DNA of 42,633 bases, taken from assembly GCA_035574235.1 (NCBI GenBank), contig DATLZA010000143.1, forward strand, positions 1 through 42,633. Direction: 5' to 3'. The DNA is from Planctomycetota bacterium. Its GTDB lineage: Bacteria; Planctomycetota; MHYJ01; JACPRB01. The position numbers were made by a program, and so were the translations under genes. Below, piece after piece: positions 20,270 to 37,231 of the stretch. Position 1 is the first letter of the stretch, and each line of letters starts with the position of its first letter. Under the pieces are notes generated by a model. The model saw nothing but the letters and a program-made list of their open reading frames with translations, was not told where the DNA came from and searched no databases.

Positions 20270-20896
20270 GTGGATCTGGCGGGAGCGATTCTGGCGGGTC
20301 TTCTGGCGCAGGCCGCCCCGGAGGCGGGGGACGCGTATTTTCCGCTGGCCGAAGGGAACCGGTGGGTCTACCGGAACGACTACGACGAAGAGACGGAGAT
20401 GATCCACGAGGTGACGGGGGCCGAGGAGGTCGGCGCGGTCCGGTGCCTGGTCCTCGAATACCGCACCCATCTGGAGGCGGAGAAGCGCACGCGGGTTCTG
20501 CGCAAGGAGTGGCTGGAGGTGACTCCGGAGGGGGTGCGGATCCACAAGGTGGTCCGGGGGTTGAGCACGTATCCGGTCGAAGAACCCTTCTTCAAGCTCA
20601 AGCGCGAGCTTCGGTCCGGCGACGCCTGGGGGGGCTCCACGCGGGGCTCGGAGCTTGCGCCCCGGTATCGGTTCTCGGTGGAAGGGGAGGAGGACGTGCA
20701 GGTTCCCGCCGGGACGTACAAGGCGGTGCGGGTGCGGGTGGCGATCGAATCGGGGGAGCGCCACGCCGCGGAAGGGCACGAGTGGTACGCGAAAGGCGTG
20801 GGGCTGGTTCGGAGCCGGATGACGATCCGGGCCCGCGGCGAGGAGGTCACGATCGGCGCAGAGCTCAAGGAGTTCCGCAAGGGGCCGGCGAAGTGA
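20270..20896 (+). CDS. Exported protein of unknown function
   Basis: 208 aa. The GTG start is fixed by a strong AAGGAGGT six nt before it. Residues 1-20 are a short signal peptide (LAGAILAGLLAQAAPEA). The mature part opens with YFPLAEGNRWVYRNDY and alternates beta strands; VPAGTYKAVRVRV and EWYAKGVGLVRSRM follow. 'Y[FY]PL-x-x-G-x-x-W-x-Y' and the 'YA-x-GVGLV' signature are common in secreted beta-rich lipoproteins that share a DUF3108-like or LolA-like fold. Function unknown; the fold comparison is an inference. Confidence 0.75.
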   Translation: MDLAGAILAGLLAQAAPEAGDAYFPLAEGNRWVYRNDYDEETEMIHEVTGAEEVGAVRCLVLEYRTHLEAEKRTRVLRKEWLEVTPEGVRIHKVVRGLSTYPVEEPFFKLKRELRSGDAWGGSTRGSELAPRYRFSVEGEEDVQVPAGTYKAVRVRVAIESGERHAAEGHEWYAKGVGLVRSRMTIRARGEEVTIGAELKEFRKGPAK

Positions 20897-20944: not shown

Positions 20945-21814
20945 ATGACACGGGTCGGCCTGGAGCTGGCCCGGGGGATCGCGTTCGCGGCGGCCTTCCT
21001 GGCGCCCGCGCGCCTGTGGGATCCGCCGCCTTCTCCGCTGGAACGGGCGCTTTTCCTCGTCCGCACGCAGGACTTCACGCCGCTTTTCGAATCCGTCTGC
21101 CGCCGGATCGAGACGCCCTTTTCGCCCGAACGGGAGGAGCGCTTTCTGGACGAGCTTTTCGGCCTGGCGGGCAAATGGAAGGCGCTGACGCGCAGCCGCG
21201 CGTCCTACGAGCGGCACGTCCGGAACGTTTTCGAGCGGCATCTCTTCGGTCCGGAGGAATTCGACCGGCTGATCGAGGGCGTGCGGGGCGACGCGAGGCG
21301 GGCCTTCGAGGCGGCGGAGAACCGGCTTCTCGTGGCGCTTTACGAGGACGTGCGGGCGGCGCGGCCGGAGCTGCGTTTCGAGCGGTTCCGGGACGATTAC
21401 GCGCGCCTCGCGGCGCGCCTGCTGCCTTCGATCCTGGGGGACGCCGGGTTCAACGTCGTGTCGTGGGTGGGAAGCGAAGCGGCCGCGGCGGGGGCCACGG
21501 CGGCCCTGGGGGCGGCGGGAATTCTGGGGGGCGCGGCGGCGGCGGGGTCGGCGAGCGGCGTGTGGACGCTCGGGGTGGGGCTTGTGGTGAGCGTGGGGGC
21601 GGGACTGGCCGTGGACGCGTGGATCGGGGGCATCTGGGAGGACGCGGCGCGGGCCGAGCTTCGGGCGCACGTGGCGGAGCTGCGCAACCGGCTGGCCGAG
21701 GAGGTGACGCGCGCGGTGGGGGAGGCGGTGGCGTGTTTCGTTCGTCTTCAGGAGTGCGCCGTGAGGGAGCTTTACGGGAGGATCGCCGATGGGCGCATGG
21801 CTGATCGCGATTAG
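20945..21814 (+). CDS. Membrane protein of unknown function, first of a pair
   Basis: 289 aa. It starts with a short hydrophobic segment (LARGIAFAAAFLAPA), then a charged helical region (35-165: FLDELFGLAGKWKAL, ERHVRNVFERHLF, RAFEAAENRLLVALYEDV). Residues about 175-225 are two Gly/Ala-rich hydrophobic stretches (AAAAGATAALGAAGILGG and VWTLGVGLVVSVGAGLAV), which could form a membrane hairpin. A helical tail follows. The downstream gene starts inside its last 26 nt. No family recognised; a membrane-remodelling or pore-like role is only a guess from the hairpin. Confidence 0.7.
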   Translation: MTRVGLELARGIAFAAAFLAPARLWDPPPSPLERALFLVRTQDFTPLFESVCRRIETPFSPEREERFLDELFGLAGKWKALTRSRASYERHVRNVFERHLFGPEEFDRLIEGVRGDARRAFEAAENRLLVALYEDVRAARPELRFERFRDDYARLAARLLPSILGDAGFNVVSWVGSEAAAAGATAALGAAGILGGAAAAGSASGVWTLGVGLVVSVGAGLAVDAWIGGIWEDAARAELRAHVAELRNRLAEEVTRAVGEAVACFVRLQECAVRELYGRIADGRMADRD

Positions 21815-22571
21815 CCTGGCTTGGGCGCCTGCGTCGCAGGCGGCGCGCCGGCTCGTGCAGGAGCTGGCCGAGGCGTTCGGCCGGGAGGCCGTGGAGCGGG
21901 TGGAGTCCCGGATCGTGCGTCTCGTGGAGGCGCACGGGGACGAGGCGGCGGCGGCGCTGCGGCGGGCGGGTCCGGCGGCGGTGCCCGTGCTGGAGGCGCA
22001 CGGGGCGACGGCGGCGCGTCTGGTGGCCCGCTGGGGGGACGAGGGGATGCGGCTCCTGGCGGCCGAGGGCGAGACGGCGATCCGGGCGGTGGGGCGGTGG
22101 GGGGATCGGGCGGCGGAATTCATGATCCGCCATCCCGGCGTGGGGAAGGATCTGCTGGAGCATTTCGGCGAACAGGCCCTTCGGGCCAACGTGTCGACGG
22201 AAGGAGCGATTCTTCTGGGGCGGCTTGCGGGTCCGATCCAGGCGTCGGGCCGGGCGGAGGAGATCTTCGGCGTGGTCGAGCGTTTCGGGGACCGGGCGTG
22301 TCAGTTTCTCTGGAGGAACAAGGGGACGGTCTTCACGGGGGCGCTGCTGGCGGCGTTCCTGGCGGATCCGAAGCCGTACCTCGACGGCGTCAGGAATCTC
22401 GTGGTGGAGCCGGCGGCGGAGGCGGCGCGGGAGGCGGTTCGGGGGACGAACTGGACGGTGGTGTTTCTGGCGATCGTGGGGGCGGGGGCGCTCGCCTTCG
22501 GGGTGCCGCGGTGGCTTCGGCGGCGCAAGGCGCGGGGAGCCGCGCTTGACTCCCCCGGAGGGGGGGCCTAG
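21789..22571 (+). CDS. Exported helical-repeat protein with C-terminal membrane anchor, second of a pair
   Basis: 260 aa. The start has GGGAGG seven nt upstream, inside the previous gene. Residues 1-18 are a signal peptide (AWLIAISLAWAPASQA). The centre is made of short Ala-rich helical units with a repeated 'hG/wG-[DE]-x-A' turn (AHGDEAA, AHGATAARL, RWGDEGMRL, RWGDRAAEF, HFGEQALRA, RFGDRACQF). One membrane span near the end (TVVFLAIVGAGALAFGV) is followed by RRRK. The topology suggests an inner-membrane anchor with the repeat outside. Unknown function; probably works with the upstream membrane protein. Confidence 0.7.
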   Translation: MGAWLIAISLAWAPASQAARRLVQELAEAFGREAVERVESRIVRLVEAHGDEAAAALRRAGPAAVPVLEAHGATAARLVARWGDEGMRLLAAEGETAIRAVGRWGDRAAEFMIRHPGVGKDLLEHFGEQALRANVSTEGAILLGRLAGPIQASGRAEEIFGVVERFGDRACQFLWRNKGTVFTGALLAAFLADPKPYLDGVRNLVVEPAAEAAREAVRGTNWTVVFLAIVGAGALAFGVPRWLRRRKARGAALDSPGGGA

Positions 22572-22599: not shown

Positions 22600-22675
22600 G
22601 GGGCTGTAGCTCAGATGGGAGAGCGCCTGAATGGCATTCAGGAGGTCGAGGGTTCGAATCCCTTCAGCTCCACCA
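22600..22675 (+). tRNA. tRNA-Ala(GGC)
   Basis: 76 nt including an encoded CCA. Acceptor stem GGGGCTG with CAGCTCC, including the G3-U70 pair that marks alanine tRNAs. Anticodon stem CCTGA/TCAGG with loop ATGGCAT, anticodon GGC. T-loop GGTTCGAATCC. Confidence 0.97.
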
Positions 22676-22785: not shown

Positions 22786-24909
22786 ATGCTCGGCGCGATC
22801 CTGTTTTGGGCGCTGGCGGGCGCCGCGGCGGACCAGGACGGCGCGGCGGACGAGAAGGAGCTTCGGCGCCGGATCGAGCAGCTCGGGGCGGATTTTCTCG
22901 AGGAGCGCCAGGCGGCGCGGGAGGCGCTGGAGAAGTTCGGCGCCCGGGCGGAAGGAGCGTTGCTCGAGGCGCTCCGGAGTCCCGACCATCGCGTTCGCGG
23001 CGTCGCGCTGGAGCTTCTCACGCTTCTTAAGTCCGCGCGGGCGCTGGACGCGGCGCGGGCGATGTTCGAGTCCGACGAGGACGCGGGCGTCCGGGACGCG
23101 GCCTTTCGACTCCTGCGGGCGCTGGGGCCCCGGGCCGAGGAGGCGCTGATCGCCGCCCTGCGCAGTCCGCGCCCCGAGCATCGCGCGGGGGCCCTTCAGT
23201 CGCTCACCGAGTTCAAGAGCGCGCGGGCGGCCAGGGACGTGGCCGACCTTCACGACCGCGAGGAGGACCCGGAGGTCAAAGCCCTGGCCTTGCGGTGTCT
23301 GCAGTCGCTGGGTCCGCCGGCCGAGCCTTTTCTTCTGAAGTATCTGGGTTCGCCCGACGCGGCCCTCCGGCGCGAGGCGCTCGAGGGGCTGCGATCGTCC
23401 TCGAGCCCCGAGGCTCTCGAGGCGGCGGGGAAGCTCTTCGCGCGGGAGACGGAGGTGCCGGTTCTCAACGCGGCGTTCGATTTCCTGCGGCAGGCGGGCC
23501 CGCGGGCGGCGCCTTTCTTCGTCGAGGCGCTCCGCAGTCCCCAGGAGCACGCCCGGGCGCGGGCGATCGAGGGGCTCAAGGCGCTTCGCCACGAGGCGGC
23601 GATCGGGCCGGTGGGGGAGGTCCTGCGGAAGGACGGTTCGGAGGCCGTCCGCGCGGCGGCGGCGGATTTTCTGAAAGGCATGGGCCTGAAGGCGGAGGAG
23701 CCGCTTGTCGAGGCGCTCTCCGCGGAGGACCGGCGGGTGCGCCTCCTGGCGCTCGAGGCGCTGGGCGAGATCCGGAGCGAGAAGCCGCTGGAGGCGGTGC
23801 GCCGGCTGTATCGCGAGGATCCGGACCGGGAGGTGCATCGGGCGGCCTTCGAGTATCTGCGGCGGTTGGGCCGGCGCGCGGAGAAGGATCTGCTCGCGGC
23901 GCTTTCGGACGAGGACAAGGAGATCCGGCGGCGGGCGATTCTGGCGCTCGGCGAGGCGGGGTCGGAGGAGGCGATTGCGCCCCTGGTGGGATTTCTCGTG
24001 CAGCGGCACGATGCGGAGATCAAAGGAGCGGCGCGGGACGCGCTCGTGCGGATCGGGCCGAAGGCGCTGGAAGCGGTGCGGCGGGCGGCCGCGGCGGGCG
24101 AAGTGGACAAGGAGATCGCCGGGGAAATGGAGGCGCTCCGCGTCCAGGAGGAGGTCGAGGGGGCGCTGGACCGGTGGGTGACGGACTTCGGGCAGAGCGG
24201 GACGTTCGAAGGACAGTTCCGCGACCTCGAGGCGCTGGGGCGGGAGAAGGCGCTGCCGGTGCTCCGGCGGATGGCGCGGGAGACGGGCTTCGCCTGGCGC
24301 CTGGCGGACCGGCGCCCGCGGAATTACGCGTACGAGCTTCGGATGCGCGAGCTGGCGATCCTGGCCCTGGGAGCGCTGGGAGATCGCGAGTCGGTCGGAG
24401 TCCTCAAGGAGGCGCTGCGGGAGGCGGGACCGGCCGGGACGGAGGGAGGATTCCGGGAGGAGCTGCTGGTGGCGCTTCATCGGCTGGGGGAGAAGGAGCC
24501 GCTGGAGGAATTCGTGGAGCGGACGCGCCGGGAAGCGCAGGAAGCCCTCCGCGGCGACGCCAAGGAGCAGGGGTGCACGCTTCTTTTCTCGGTAGGGCTG
24601 GTGCTCAACCGCGTCGGGCGGAAGGACGAGGCGCGCGAGGCGTACCGGGCGATCGTGAAGGCGGTGGACGAGCATGGGATCGCGGACGCGGGGGTTCTTC
24701 CCACGGCGGCCTACAACCTGGCCTGTCTGGAGGCGCAGGCGGGGCGCAAGAGGGAGGCGGTCGAGTGGCTCGAAAAAGCCGTCCGCGCGGGGTTCAAGGA
24801 TCGCCAATGGATCCGGATGGACCGGGATCTCGATCCCATCCGGGACGAGGAGCGTTACCGCGCGCTTCTGGCCGACGAGGCGCTCTTCCGCGTCGAGGAC
24901 CGCAACTGA
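22786..24909 (+). CDS. Exported HEAT-repeat protein with C-terminal TPR-like region
   Basis: 707 aa. Residues 1-15 are a signal peptide (LGAILFWALAGAAA). Residues about 25-460 are a run of HEAT-like units of about 31 residues, each with a 'LRSPD-x-x-VR-x-x-AL-x-x-L' pattern (for example RSPDHRVRGVALELL, AEDRRVRLLALEAL, SDEDKEIRRRAILAL). Residues about 600-690 look like a TPR pair (GRKDEAREAYRAIVKAV, AAYNLACLEAQAGRKREAVEWLEKAVRAGF). Such proteins are scaffolds for protein binding, here in the periplasm. It has its own promoter and Shine-Dalgarno. It ends 10 nt from the convergent cupin gene. No specific partner can be named. Confidence 0.85.
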   Translation: MLGAILFWALAGAAADQDGAADEKELRRRIEQLGADFLEERQAAREALEKFGARAEGALLEALRSPDHRVRGVALELLTLLKSARALDAARAMFESDEDAGVRDAAFRLLRALGPRAEEALIAALRSPRPEHRAGALQSLTEFKSARAARDVADLHDREEDPEVKALALRCLQSLGPPAEPFLLKYLGSPDAALRREALEGLRSSSSPEALEAAGKLFARETEVPVLNAAFDFLRQAGPRAAPFFVEALRSPQEHARARAIEGLKALRHEAAIGPVGEVLRKDGSEAVRAAAADFLKGMGLKAEEPLVEALSAEDRRVRLLALEALGEIRSEKPLEAVRRLYREDPDREVHRAAFEYLRRLGRRAEKDLLAALSDEDKEIRRRAILALGEAGSEEAIAPLVGFLVQRHDAEIKGAARDALVRIGPKALEAVRRAAAAGEVDKEIAGEMEALRVQEEVEGALDRWVTDFGQSGTFEGQFRDLEALGREKALPVLRRMARETGFAWRLADRRPRNYAYELRMRELAILALGALGDRESVGVLKEALREAGPAGTEGGFREELLVALHRLGEKEPLEEFVERTRREAQEALRGDAKEQGCTLLFSVGLVLNRVGRKDEAREAYRAIVKAVDEHGIADAGVLPTAAYNLACLEAQAGRKREAVEWLEKAVRAGFKDRQWIRMDRDLDPIRDEERYRALLADEALFRVEDRN

Positions 24910-33372: not shown

Positions 33373-33449
33373 TGGTGGGCGTGGGCAGACTCGAACTGCC
33401 GACCTTTCGCTTATCAAGCGAATGCTCTAACCAACTGAGCTACACGCCC
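33373..33449 (-). tRNA. tRNA-Ile(GAT)
   Basis: 77 nt with encoded CCA. Acceptor GGGCGTG with CACGCCC, anticodon stem TTCGC/GCGAA with loop TTGATAA, anticodon GAT. In most bacteria it lies in the spacer between 16S and 23S rRNA; here it is 2.3 kb past the 16S gene. Confidence 0.97.
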
Positions 33450-33491
33450 GATTGTTTCAAAGAGCGAGCGCCGGGGCGCCCGGGGCTGAGA

Positions 33492-33566
33492 TGGTGGACC
33501 CGACCGGAGTCGAACCGGCAGCCTCCTGGTTGCAAACCAGGCGTTCTCCCATTGAACTACGGGCCC
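33492..33566 (-). tRNA. tRNA-Ala(TGC)
   Basis: 75 nt with encoded CCA. Acceptor GGGCCCG with CGGGTCC, including the G3-U70 alanine marker. Anticodon stem CCTGG/CCAGG, loop TTTGCAA, anticodon TGC. It lies 42 nt before tRNA-Ile, the reverse of the usual Ile-Ala order. Confidence 0.97.
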
Positions 33567-33682
33567 CCTTGGAATCGGCGGCGGAAGGTGGCCTCCGGCG
33601 CCGCTCGCGGGGGGGGCCGCGACGGCTGCCGCCCGCCCTCTCGGGGGATGGACCGCCTTCGAGCGCCGGGGCGACGCGCTTA

Positions 33683-33711
33683 TATATAATCGGCCCCGGT
33701 CGCAGGGTCAA
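33683..33711 (-). promoter_or_regulatory. Promoter of the tRNA-Ala/tRNA-Ile unit
   Basis: TTGACC at 33706-33711 and TATATA at 33683-33688, spacer 17 nt. Predicted start about 110 nt before tRNA-Ala. Confidence 0.6.
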
Positions 33712-33737
33712 CGCTTTCTTTCCGCAGGGCCGCGGCG

Positions 33738-34139
33738 CTATCGACGGGACTTGAAGGGGTCCACTTCGGGCAGGCGGGCGCCGTTGCCGACGACGATTCT
33801 CTGGAAGCGGTAGTGCCGCAGGGTCGGCGAGAGGTACTCGCACTTGGTGAGGATCCAGTCTTCGTTGAAGAGGTAGGGCGCCAGGCGGCGGGCCCCGGTG
33901 GGATCGGTCTGGTCGATATAAAGGTCCACGACGTCGAAGCGCCGATCCCCTTGGGGGACGGTGGTGGCGGCGGCCGAAGGGCGGGACTTGTCGGCGATCC
34001 CTTTCTGGCGCAGCTCGGCGGCCAGGGCGGTTTCCTGAGGGGCCGAGGCGGAAGCGAGGGGCGGGCGTTCGGACTCTTCGGGCGCGCCGCTGCAGGCGGT
34101 TCCGGCGGCCAGGGCGGTCGCGAGGATCCAGGTTCTCAT
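33738..34139 (-). CDS. Small exported protein of unknown function
   Basis: 133 aa from the ATG at 34139; an ATG at 34151 would add four residues. Signal peptide MRTWILATALAAGTAC; the Cys could be a lipidation site, but the box (GTAC) is weak. A low-complexity stretch follows, then VDLYIDQTDPTGARRLAPYLFNEDWILTKCEYLSPTLRHYRF, which reads like a short beta-rich domain. No Shine-Dalgarno; a perfect TATAAT ends 10 nt before the ATG. It lies between the 16S gene and its former tRNA partners. Family not recognised. Confidence 0.7.
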   Translation of the reverse strand: MRTWILATALAAGTACSGAPEESERPPLASASAPQETALAAELRQKGIADKSRPSAAATTVPQGDRRFDVVDLYIDQTDPTGARRLAPYLFNEDWILTKCEYLSPTLRHYRFQRIVVGNGARLPEVDPFKSRR

Positions 34140-34149
34140 GGGCCGGCCC

Positions 34150-34155
34150 ATTATA
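34150..34155 (-). promoter_or_regulatory. -10 box of the small exported protein gene
   Basis: TATAAT, 10 nt before the ATG. The intervening GGGCCGGCCC is a palindrome. No clear -35. Confidence 0.4.
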
Positions 34156-34239
34156 TCTTAAGGACGTTTCCACGGAGCGTTTTTCCGCCTCCGGTGGGGA
34201 GGCATTTTCGTATAAAGGACGAAAACGTCGGAGGTCTTC

Positions 34240-35493
34240 ATGGCCAAAGTTCTTTCATTCCTCGCCGCTTTTGTCCTTCTTCTCCAGGCCGACCCGCGGG
34301 TCGAGGCGCTTCGGGAGATCACGGAAGAGGGGCTTCGCTCCCATGTGAGCTTTCTGGCGGACGACGCCCTGGAGGGGAGGGCCGCCGGCTTTCCCGGCAA
34401 CGAAAAGGCGGTGGAGTATCTGGTCAAAGAGGTGACTTCGTACGGCCTGGTTCCGGCGGGGGAGGACGGGCGGTTCACGCAGGAATTCGTGACGGCGGCC
34501 GGGCGCCGGGCGAAGAACGTGATCGCGCTTCTGGAAGGCTCGGATCCCGAGCGGCGGGGCGAGTATGTGGCGATCGGCGCGCACCTCGACCATGTGGGAC
34601 GCAAGGGGCAAGGGGTGGGCGGGCAGGTGGGCGAGACCCGCGAGGGGGACGACATCTGGAACGGCGCCGACGACAACGCGAGCGGCACGTCGGCGGTTCT
34701 TGCGGCGGCCAAGGCTTTCTCGCGTCTGCGCGCGCGGCCGAAGCGGTCGGTGCTTTTCTGCTGGTGGAACGCCGAGGAATCGGGGCTGGAAGGGTCGCGC
34801 CACTGGGTGCGGCAGCCGACGCGTCCTCTGGAAAAGGTGGTGTACTACCTGAATCTCGACATGGTGGGGCGCAACCCCGGGCGGCCGATGGACCTTGAGG
34901 GGGTGAAGAACGCCGAGGGGGACGCGCTGGAGCGGATCCTGACCGAGGCGTGCCGGGCGGAGGATCTGGCGTTCACGAAGTACGACCACTACCACGAGGC
35001 GATGTTCCGTTCGGACGGAGCGTCCTTCCTGTGGGCGGGCATTCCGGCGTCGATGTTTTTCACGTCCTGGCATGCCGACTATCATCGCGTGGGCGATCAT
35101 GCGGACAAGATCGCCTACGGGAATCTCGCCAAGATCGCGCGGGCGGCCTTTCGGGTCGCCTACGACGTGGCGAATCTTCCGGAGGCTTTGCGGATCAACG
35201 TGGACACGCCGCTGCGGGGGCGGCCGCTTCGGATCCGGGCGGAGGACGCGCGGGTGGGCCAGGCCGGAGCGTGCCGGGTGACGGAGGTGGCGGAGGACAG
35301 CGCGCTGGGTCGGGCGGGGCTTCGGCCGGGGGACTTGGTGGTGGGGTTTCGGGGCCAGCCGCTTCCGGCGTCGCGTCCGGTGGCGGAACTCTGGCGGCGG
35401 ATTCAGGCGGCGCCGGCGGATCGGGAGCTGGAACTCGAGGTGGTGCGGGGCGGGGAACGGCAGACGCTCAAGGTCGTCTGGCCCGCGCGGTAG
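34240..35493 (+). CDS. Exported M28-family zinc aminopeptidase with PDZ domain
   Basis: 417 aa. It removes N-terminal residues from peptides outside the inner membrane. Signal peptide 1-16 (MAKVLSFLAAFVLLLQA). Zinc and catalytic residues of the M28 fold: His115 (GAHLDHVG), Asp144/145 (GADDNASG), Glu179-Glu180 (WNAEESGLEGS), Asp207 (NLDMVGR) and His282 (DYHRVGDHADKI). Residues about 325-410 form a PDZ-like domain (AEDSALGRAGLRPGDLVVGFRG), which may bind substrate tails. GGAGG precedes the ATG. Convergent with the 16S gene. Confidence 0.92.
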   Translation: MAKVLSFLAAFVLLLQADPRVEALREITEEGLRSHVSFLADDALEGRAAGFPGNEKAVEYLVKEVTSYGLVPAGEDGRFTQEFVTAAGRRAKNVIALLEGSDPERRGEYVAIGAHLDHVGRKGQGVGGQVGETREGDDIWNGADDNASGTSAVLAAAKAFSRLRARPKRSVLFCWWNAEESGLEGSRHWVRQPTRPLEKVVYYLNLDMVGRNPGRPMDLEGVKNAEGDALERILTEACRAEDLAFTKYDHYHEAMFRSDGASFLWAGIPASMFFTSWHADYHRVGDHADKIAYGNLAKIARAAFRVAYDVANLPEALRINVDTPLRGRPLRIRAEDARVGQAGACRVTEVAEDSALGRAGLRPGDLVVGFRGQPLPASRPVAELWRRIQAAPADRELELEVVRGGERQTLKVVWPAR

Positions 35494-35616
35494 GGAAGGG
35501 CGCGGGGAATAAAAAAAGACGGCAAGAGGGGTTTCGGCGCGCGTGGTTGGGCGCACGGCGCTTCCACCGGCGGAGATATCGGGACCCTTTTCTCTTCGCA
35601 GTTCCACGGATCGCTT

Positions 35617-35630
35617 CATCCCGAAGGATG
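35617..35630 (-). other. UUCG-type hairpin in the 16S trailer
   Basis: On the minus strand CATCC, TTCG, GGATG. It lies beyond the processing stem, about 80 nt after the 16S 3' end. A T-run on the same strand (35508-35517) lies further on and may mark the transcript end, without a clean hairpin directly before it. Confidence 0.4.
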
Positions 35631-35664
35631 GGCGTCCATGAAACGTGTCGTAGAGCCTGGGTGG

Positions 35665-35676
35665 AATCTCCCTTCG
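35665..35676 (-). other. 3' half of the 16S precursor processing stem
   Basis: On the minus strand CGAAGGGAGATT. It is complementary to AATCCCTTCG in the leader (37241-37250), with one bulged G. It would close a loop around the 16S sequence, as RNase III stems do. A second hairpin (CATCCC, GAAA, GGGATG at 35683-35698) lies between it and the 16S end. Confidence 0.55.
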
Positions 35677-35708
35677 TCGAATCATCCCTTTCGGGATGGG
35701 TCCTTAGA

Positions 35709-37231
<1,523 letters not shown>

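What the first reader, a model, noticed from the sequence alone, without database searches (positions are those of the whole stretch)
20945..22571. Unrecognised two-gene membrane module
The first gene encodes a helical protein with a Gly/Ala-rich hydrophobic hairpin; the second, overlapping it by 26 nt, encodes an exported repeat of short 'G-[DE]-x-A' helices with a C-terminal anchor and RRRK tail. Coupling, complementary topology and lack of similarity to families I know suggest a dedicated envelope complex. The hairpin recalls membrane-inserting segments of pore-forming or translocator proteins, but that is speculation.
Basis: inference. Interest (0 to 1): 0.5.

Follow-up and report, generated by a model that had tools for sequence, protein, structure and literature searches.

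The report
Undescribed planctomycete two-gene membrane module
Two overlapping, unnamed genes encode a pair of exported, membrane-anchored helical proteins that stay side by side across distant Planctomycetota and sometimes ride on mobile DNA, which suggests they work together in the cell envelope, although what they do there is not yet known.

Summary
Gene A (20945-21814, 289 aa) and gene B (21789-22571, 260 aa) overlap by 26 nt; both have Planctomycetota homologues and no convincing match in Pfam, NCBIfam or PDB. Of 32 B loci examined, 29 have A adjacent on the same strand, including a lineage with reversed order. A has an N-terminal anchor, a helical bundle, a Gly/Ala hydrophobic hairpin (weak or absent in some members) and a long C-terminal helix. 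B has a signal peptide, a solenoid of 11-residue helices, a C-terminal TM and a basic tail. Neighbours differ: DUF3108-like genes and tRNA-Ala here; elsewhere MlaD, cas1-cas2, ZacAB, and in 8 of 31 loci a type IV coupling-protein and/or ParB gene, including plasmid pSINAC03. Best reading: a two-protein envelope complex whose bundle inserts a hairpin into a membrane, working like a GTPase-less dynamin trunk with paddle. A corrected profile comparison gives 58.9% for A's bundle against dynamin-like proteins, but other tests are weak, so homology is not established, nor is any link to pore-forming toxins. Function is inferred. One family (15 genomes) keeps B-like repeats, with no A found.

The parts
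20945..21814 (+). Gene A, 289 aa: N-terminal hydrophobic signal/anchor (about residues 4-22), helical bundle (30-167), Gly/Ala-rich hydrophobic hairpin (about 168-225), long C-terminal helix (229-285)
   Evidence: ORF; homologues in 4 of 5 family genomes and 2 other class members; hydropathy; AlphaFold2 model, mean pLDDT 70.8, most of the hairpin below 50
21789..22571 (+). Gene B, 260 aa: signal peptide, solenoid of short helices in 11-residue register, conserved core (FLWRNKG...LAAFLADPxPYLDG), C-terminal TM (222-240), basic RRRK tail
   Evidence: ORF; homologues; register test; AlphaFold2 model, pLDDT above 90 through most of residues 41-180
21789..21814 (+). 26-nt overlap of gene A and gene B; same length in sister genome G001
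20270..20896 (+). Upstream DUF3108-like protein gene, 208 aa, 48 nt before gene A; a related gene precedes the pair in G001, G002 and G003
   Evidence: Pfam PF21347, E 5.5e-9, over its cut-off (only the window's protein was scanned); 58% identity to the G001 gene and 35% to one of two in G003; the genes of G001, G002 and G003 cluster together
22600..22675 (+). tRNA-Ala (GGC) 28 nt after gene B; same tRNA follows gene B in G002 and G003; the G001 contig ends about 100 nt after gene B

Best explanation
The two genes encode a dedicated two-protein cell-envelope complex of Planctomycetota. B is exported, held in the inner membrane by its C-terminal helix with a basic tail in the cytoplasm, and presents a helical solenoid on the outer face. 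A is exported, tethered by its N-terminus (a hydrophobic segment, or lipid in some relatives) and folds into a long helical bundle that carries a Gly/Ala-rich hydrophobic hairpin. I propose that B's solenoid binds A and controls insertion of the hairpin into a membrane, so that the pair locally remodels, bridges or permeabilises the envelope, much as the trunk and hydrophobic paddle of a bacterial dynamin do, but without a GTPase domain. Shown: two genuine, adjacent genes; pairing across distant lineages; export and anchor signals by sequence; recurrent association with coupling-protein/ParB genes in one order and on one plasmid. Inferred: physical complex, hairpin insertion, control by B, and the physiological use.
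For: Pairing: 29 of 32 B loci have A adjacent on the same strand, also where the order is reversed; in the class 6 of 23 genomes have both and none has only one. The trees of A and B are correlated (r 0.67, Mantel p 2e-4, 27 loci), which shared descent also predicts. Topology: N-terminal and hairpin peaks in A, C-terminal TM in B, and 3-7 K/R in the last 22 residues of B in 14 of 14. Hairpin: hydropathy peak of at least 1.6 in the second half of 23 of 29 A sequences. Dynamin-like arrangement: profile-profile comparison of A with 25 dynamin-like GTPases of the phylum gives probability 58.9%, score 44.5 over 86 columns of the bundle, against at most 22.8 in 100 shuffled and 23.1 for the reversed A alignment, and 14.5 for gene B (this mends, see Tried and rejected). 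VIA-align has MxB (Z 9.1, rmsd 5.2, 198 aligned), MxA stalk (8.4, 4.7, 188), Drp1 and dynamin among its top rows. PADLOC's LeoBC model matches 3 of 14 A proteins, best E 1.4e-5, in the window at LeoBC positions 370-521, outside the GTPase part. Membrane-interface core of B: the NCBIfam aureocin A53 model matches 9 of 10 chosen B proteins at E below 0.1 over the same stretch of about 20 residues, one over the curated cut-off.
Against: No dynamin test is decisive: 58.9% is not a confident profile match and does not cover the hairpin; Z 8-9 is within what helical bundles give by chance, a designed helix bundle ranks second (Z 8.8), and the bacterial dynamin rows superpose badly (rmsd about 18). 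A plain profile search of A against 36 P-loop proteins does not separate real from reversed sequences. The LeoBC model is promiscuous in whole-genome use (338 of 339 genomes, many rows being GTPase stretches). The hairpin is weak or missing in five full-length A sequences, so it may not be essential. No complex was modelled. Aureocin matches at E 0.01 or better number only 3 of 14 (NCBIfam) and 2 of 14 (Pfam). The f50 family keeps B-like repeats with no A found.
Confidence: 0.35

Rival explanations
1. Passive structural or housekeeping envelope module: A and B tether or scaffold the envelope (for example around lipid or outer-membrane lipoprotein transport), with no membrane-inserting activity; the hairpin is just a second anchor.
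For: In the window's family the position is kept beside DUF3108-like genes and, where the contig reaches, tRNA-Ala, as for a vertically inherited gene; in G007 an MlaD-domain protein gene lies directly upstream; two relatives carry lipoprotein-like N-termini by eye.
Against: Patchy distribution (A in 11 of 392 genomes with the narrow profile; three more of these genomes, G123, G140 and G360, have A by the iterated profile) and presence on mobile elements are odd for housekeeping; the MlaD and DUF3108 contexts were each seen in one family only.
Confidence: 0.26
2. Defence or exclusion pair: A is a membrane-permeabilising effector held in check by B, used by mobile elements and host islands to exclude plasmids or phages or to abort infection.
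For: 8 of 31 loci lie beside coupling-protein and/or ParB genes; pair directly upstream of ZacA-ZacB in G360 and next to cas2-cas1 in G278; the pair is an accessory of such elements, since in 34 other coupling-protein loci read no pair was found; weak bacteriocin-like stretch in B.
Against: No PADLOC match to an effector family beyond the weak LeoBC hit; only two loci beside known defence genes; a kept chromosomal place in the window's family, where no defence gene was noticed in the close neighbourhood; no test of toxicity.
Confidence: 0.2
3. Part of a DNA-transfer route: on planctomycete elements with a MobF relaxase and a coupling protein but no detected VirB4, the pair supplies the envelope passage.
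For: pSINAC03 carries relaxase, coupling protein, ParB and the pair; the VirB4 model has no match there, and 0 of 12 genomes or records pass its cut-off. Association with coupling-protein/ParB genes appears in one f32 clade (support 0.94) and on pSINAC03 outside it.
Against: 34 other coupling-protein loci, 15 with ParB and 8 with MobF, show no pair; the window's own genome has no coupling protein; MOB-suite types pSINAC03 as MPF_T, so an undetected transfer system may exist; the hairpin is weak in 4 of the 7 A proteins of this context (L115, L140, L145, L146), though strong in L136 and L139.
Confidence: 0.1
4. Chance ORFs in high-GC DNA, or an annotation artefact.
For: The window is full of overlapping long ORFs on both strands.
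Against: Protein-level conservation at 22-54% identity across families, with the genes kept together.
Confidence: 0.01

Closest known systems
Bacterial dynamin-like proteins (LeoA/LeoBC, Nostoc BDLP1, C. jejuni DLP pair): trunk and hydrophobic paddle
   Same: Long helical bundle interrupted near its end by a Gly-rich hydrophobic hairpin, then a C-terminal helix; profile-profile 58.9% for the bundle; weak LeoBC profile match. PMC4159319 (passages read) describes a glycine-rich paddle with conserved hydrophobic residues and periplasmic localisation of LeoA.
   Different: Gene A is 289 aa without a GTPase domain and carries an export signal; plain profile search does not separate real from reversed dynamins.
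ClyA-type alpha-pore-forming toxins (AhlB, SmhB, YaxAB, MakA)
   Same: Helical bundle with a hydrophobic head (recalled); many rows in the Foldseek list for gene A.
   Different: No significant match (E above 0.2, TM at most 0.20); Z at most 5.8, below dynamin stalks; gene A has an N-terminal anchor.
Aureocin A53 family leaderless bacteriocins (NF033881, PF11758)
   Same: A stretch of about 20 residues in B's conserved core matches, one homologue (L064) over both curated cut-offs.
   Different: Only about 20 of 48-51 model positions, inside a 260-aa anchored protein; the window's own protein is far under the cut-off (14.2 of 27 bits).
Short-helix solenoids (TAL effector/BurrH repeats, designed helical repeats)
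   Same: Stack of short helices (best Z 5.7, rmsd 5.5, 111 aligned).
   Different: 11-residue spacing of the repeated glycine, exported protein, Z below the trusted level.
Type IV secretion / conjugation modules (VirD4/TraG coupling-protein elements)
   Same: In 7 of 31 loci the pair lies within 8 kb of a coupling-protein gene.
   Different: The pair matches no VirB/Tra/Trb family in the libraries searched, and the window's genome has no coupling protein.

Membership tests
Dynamin superfamily (LeoBC/BDLP) | GTPase domain with P-loop | tested here: not met
   Gene A is 289 aa of helices with no Pfam match
Dynamin superfamily (LeoBC/BDLP) | Trunk/stalk helical-bundle fold | tested here: inconclusive
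   Z 8.0-9.1 to several dynamin stalks, within chance range for bundles; profile-profile 58.9%, above 100 of 100 shuffles; real and reversed dynamins not separated by plain profile search
Dynamin superfamily (LeoBC/BDLP) | Hydrophobic paddle hairpin at the trunk tip | tested here: inconclusive
   Hydrophobic peak in 23 of 29 A sequences and in 33 of 36 P-loop proteins read beyond residue 250; position at a tip not resolved, pLDDT below 50
ClyA-type alpha-pore-forming toxins | Significant structural match to the ClyA fold | tested here: inconclusive
   Foldseek E above 0.2; Z at most 5.8
ClyA-type alpha-pore-forming toxins | Pore formation in membranes | not testable with these tools
   needs liposome or electrophysiology assay
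Aureocin A53 family bacteriocin (NF033881/PF11758) | Score over the curated cut-off | tested here: not met
   Window protein 14.2 bits of 27, no Pfam row; one homologue of ten (L064) passes both
Aureocin A53 family bacteriocin (NF033881/PF11758) | Short leaderless peptide of about 50 residues | tested here: not met
   260-aa protein with N-terminal signal and TM
Type IV secretion system component | Profile match to a VirB/Tra/Trb family | tested here: not met
   No such Pfam or NCBIfam match; A was scanned against NCBIfam only
Type IV secretion system component | Linked to coupling protein wherever it occurs | tested here: not met
   Coupling protein within 8 kb in 7 of 31 loci; none in the window's genome
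Known anti-phage defence family (PADLOC) | Convincing profile match | tested here: not met
   Gene A of the window: LeoBC at 15.2 bits; gene B best E 0.0042; LeoBC best E 1.4e-5 among 14 A proteins

The most novel reading that the evidence does not exclude
The pair is a Planctomycetota-specific, GTPase-less membrane-remodelling machine that hosts keep in the chromosome and that mobile elements without a detectable VirB4 have captured at least twice, placing it beside their coupling protein, where it forms or guards the envelope passage for DNA (transfer or exclusion). If so, planctomycete plasmids would move or exclude DNA through an envelope device unrelated to the VirB apparatus.
Probability: 0.1. 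Interest if true: 0.85.

Novelty: new variant of a known kind. Interest (0 to 1): 0.48.

Why it matters
Planctomycetota have an unusual envelope (recalled) and few understood envelope machines. This is a pair not described in the libraries searched, nearly inseparable, found both in chromosomes and on mobile elements of the phylum, one of them typed conjugative. It gives a concrete two-gene target: whether it remodels membranes, excludes DNA or aids its passage can be tested directly. It also draws attention to planctomycete relaxase/coupling-protein elements; in the seven element-bearing records tested no VirB4 reached its cut-off, so how they cross the envelope is open.

Tried and rejected
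Pfam, NCBIfam and PADLOC for single proteins and for whole alignments gave no convincing family. PDB sequence search gave only chance-level rows, E 0.66 for A and 0.033 at best for B. Foldseek gave no match at E 0.001 for either model; VIA-align rows stay under the level to trust.

The dynamin idea was tested with 36 P-loop proteins from 30 loci fetched with the LeoBC model. My first profile-profile run (score 38.8, 33%, 51 columns, at most 32.8 in 60 shuffles) held three wrong-frame ORFs among its 21 rows (L215, L221, L230). A plain profile search did not separate real and reversed proteins (reversed best independent E 0.002; real 0.0002, in the N-terminal part of its protein, and 0.0017). 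I therefore claim a like arrangement, not homology. The first 430 residues of an f50 repeat protein do not match gene A (probability 0.03%); its C-terminal half matches gene B (98.2%).

Other hosts: no relative in IMG/VR with two queries, none in phages with one; in plasmids three queries found only pSINAC03 and a fourth found none. Genome contigs with one narrow pattern gave 5 loci, all titled Planctomycetota. Phyla outside Planctomycetota were not searched with profiles, so phylum restriction is not proven.

The 323-aa protein before the B gene in L148 may be a diverged A, but the test is inconclusive (probability 0.5%). Rows dropped before the 32-locus count: L065 and L067 (same places as L145 and L146), L074 (repeat-only), and all f50, other f26 and G006 hits. 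L143 was dropped before the 31-locus count. L064 and L144 (a sequence under 150 residues) and the three loci without A are not in the 27-locus tree. Of the 34 coupling-protein loci several lie on short contigs (for example L156, L204, L205), so a pair could lie beyond the end; one weak gene B hit (E 5.8e-4, a 102-aa predicted gene in L188) was not counted.

Full report
What was checked. The two ORFs exist at the stated places, overlap by 26 nt and lie between a DUF3108-like gene and a tRNA-Ala(GGC) gene. The genome is taken as Planctomycetota because the 5 relatives recovered with gene B from named genomes are all titled so.

Are they genes? Yes. Of 5 genomes of the family (the window's own included) both proteins occur in 4; the fifth, 64% complete, has neither. 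The sister genome G001 keeps the same order, identity 45% (A) and 55% (B), and the same 26-nt overlap; in G003 the overlap is 20 nt and in G002 a gap of 9 nt separates them. The DUF3108-like gene upstream recurs in these genomes (58% identity to G001's, 35% to one of G003's), and tRNA-Ala(GGC) downstream recurs in G002 and G003; G001's contig ends too soon.

How constant is the pair? With family profiles, 6 of 23 genomes of the class have A and the same 6 have B. In f4 (G007, G016) the order is reversed, B then A, and an MlaD-domain gene precedes B in G007. In a sample of 392 genomes of the phylum the 6-row A profile finds 11 genomes and the broader B profile 36. By my count those 36 are 16 genomes with full-type B, 15 genomes of family f50 with repeat-rich single proteins, 4 genomes of f26 with repeat-only hits, and G006 with one weak hit. 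No A was found in f50 genomes by the narrow profile nor beside the B-like gene in the 7 f50 loci read. Adding an order-level sample (14 of 150 genomes) and a plasmid, iterated profiles over 32 loci with B found A adjacent and on the same strand in 29; the three without are L072, L143 (a weak partial hit) and L148. Members of the query alignments match by construction, and the loci were found mostly through B, so this counts how often B has A and is a less fair count of the reverse. All 11 genomes found through A also have B.

Anatomy. A: N-terminal hydrophobic segment, bundle, hairpin, C-terminal helix; hairpin peaks 1.44 and 1.88 in the window. In 29 A sequences the best peak of the second half is at least 1.6 in 23; the other six are L115, L142, L140, L145, L146 and the fragment L064. 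G002 and G003 A proteins begin like lipoproteins (my reading; no predictor was run). B: signal peptide, short helices in 11-residue glycine register in the window (3 of 20,000 shuffles) and to the same length in one of 13 others, a conserved core ending in AFLADPxPYLDG, a C-terminal TM, and 3-7 K/R in the last 22 residues in 14 of 14.

Structure. B's model (mean pLDDT 77, over 90 across most of residues 41-180) is a helical solenoid without a significant PDB match. A's model (mean 71) is a bundle of long helices; most of its hairpin is unresolved. Foldseek rows for A include many ClyA-type toxins at E above 0.2. VIA-align has dynamin-family stalks among the top rows (MxB Z 9.1, rmsd 5.2, 198 aligned; bacterial dynamin pair Z 8.4 but rmsd 17.6), with a designed helix bundle second at Z 8.8. 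PADLOC's LeoBC model hits 3 of 14 A proteins, best E 1.4e-5. Sequence tests are mixed. With 25 dynamin-like proteins of the phylum the profile-profile score is 44.5, probability 58.9%, over 86 columns of the bundle, against at most 22.8 in 100 shuffles, 23.1 reversed and 14.5 for gene B (which mends). A plain profile search does not separate real from reversed proteins. Passages of PMC4159319 report a glycine-rich paddle and periplasmic location for LeoA, the nearest published parallel I saw.

A stretch of about 20 residues in B's core matches the aureocin A53 bacteriocin model in 9 of 10 chosen proteins at E below 0.1, over the cut-off in one; at E 0.01 it is 3 of 14 and for the Pfam model 2 of 14. 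I treat it as a shared membrane-interface motif, not membership. PMC6072434 (outline only) groups such bacteriocins with saposin-like peptides.

Mobile contexts. Of 31 loci, 7 have a coupling-protein gene and 7 a ParB gene within 8 kb, 8 loci in all. In the order-level sample, which was not chosen by coupling proteins, 7 of 16 B loci are of this kind. The coupling-protein family gives 72 matching stretches in 44 of 150 genomes, so a chance neighbour within 8 kb would be expected in far fewer than one of 16. The plasmid pSINAC03 of Singulisphaera acidiphila carries MobF relaxase, ParB, A, B and coupling protein in a 32-kb circle typed conjugative, MPF_T. PMC5352709 (passages read) reports its synteny with pPALBO2; the words conjugat-, relaxase and type IV secret- were not found in its main text. 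The VirB4 model has no match on the plasmid; 0 of 12 records pass its cut-off, with weak sub-threshold rows (about 20 bits) in G477 and G368; in the 14 control genomes it passes the cut-off in 1. In the tree the f32 coupling-protein/ParB loci form one clade (support 0.94) and pSINAC03 falls outside it, so two recruitments are the simplest reading, though nodes around pSINAC03 have support of only about 0.6. Against an essential transfer role: all 34 other coupling-protein matches with E below 1e-30 were read and none showed the pair, 15 with ParB and 8 with MobF (some contigs are short), and the window's genome has no coupling protein.

Defence contexts. In G278 the pair is followed at once by cas2 and cas1; in G360 by ZacA and ZacB. 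Two loci are too few for a claim.

Verdict. A genuine, nearly inseparable two-gene envelope module that the libraries searched do not describe. The most likely mechanism is a two-protein complex with a membrane-inserting hairpin bundle (A) and a TM-anchored solenoid partner (B); this is inference at about one in three. I filed it as a new variant of a known kind because the leading reading is a dynamin-trunk-like or similar hairpin bundle with a new partner and no GTPase; if that likeness is only chance, it would be a family of its own. Paper searches for pSINAC03, planctomycete MOBF plasmids, planctomycete conjugation with a coupling protein, LeoBC/Eleos and saposin-like bacteriocins (listings seen) listed nothing that I recognised as describing the pair; the library lacks most subscription journals.

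Noticed in passing
window 33373-37230: 16S rRNA (35708-37230, -) is followed by tRNA-Ala and tRNA-Ile only after about 2.1 kb, and no 23S rRNA reached the Rfam threshold in the window: an unusually long spacer or a split rRNA operon.
   Followed up: no
L075:5238-7262 and other f50 loci (L076-L081): Single repeat-rich proteins (open frames 586-715 aa in 14 of 15 f50 genomes) carry many YGDDV-type 11-residue repeats; one tested has a B-like C-terminal half (profile-profile 98.2%) and an N-terminal part that does not match A.
   Followed up: partly
L115, L134, L136, L145, L146, L181-L193, L206, L207: Planctomycete mobile elements with ParB and a coupling protein, some with a MobF relaxase and, by eye, a serine recombinase. 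VirB4 was tested only in pSINAC03 and 11 genomes, six of them element-bearing (G123, G307, G412, G423, G477, G481), with none over the cut-off.
   Followed up: partly
L071:5866-11279: The pair lies directly upstream of ZacA and ZacB defence genes, all on one strand.
   Followed up: partly
L066:187-3611: A, B, cas2 and cas1 follow each other closely on one strand, at the end of a short contig.
   Followed up: no
L068, L070, L137, L138: An unknown family (SFxWFGxxKTL near its start) recurs within 4 kb of the pair in two lineages, in L068 and L070 beside an AAA ATPase gene.
   Followed up: no
L017:8969-9565: A short MlaD-domain protein gene sits directly upstream of B in G007.
   Followed up: no
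window 22786-24909: HEAT-repeat and TPR-like protein of 707 aa just after the tRNA gene.
   Followed up: no
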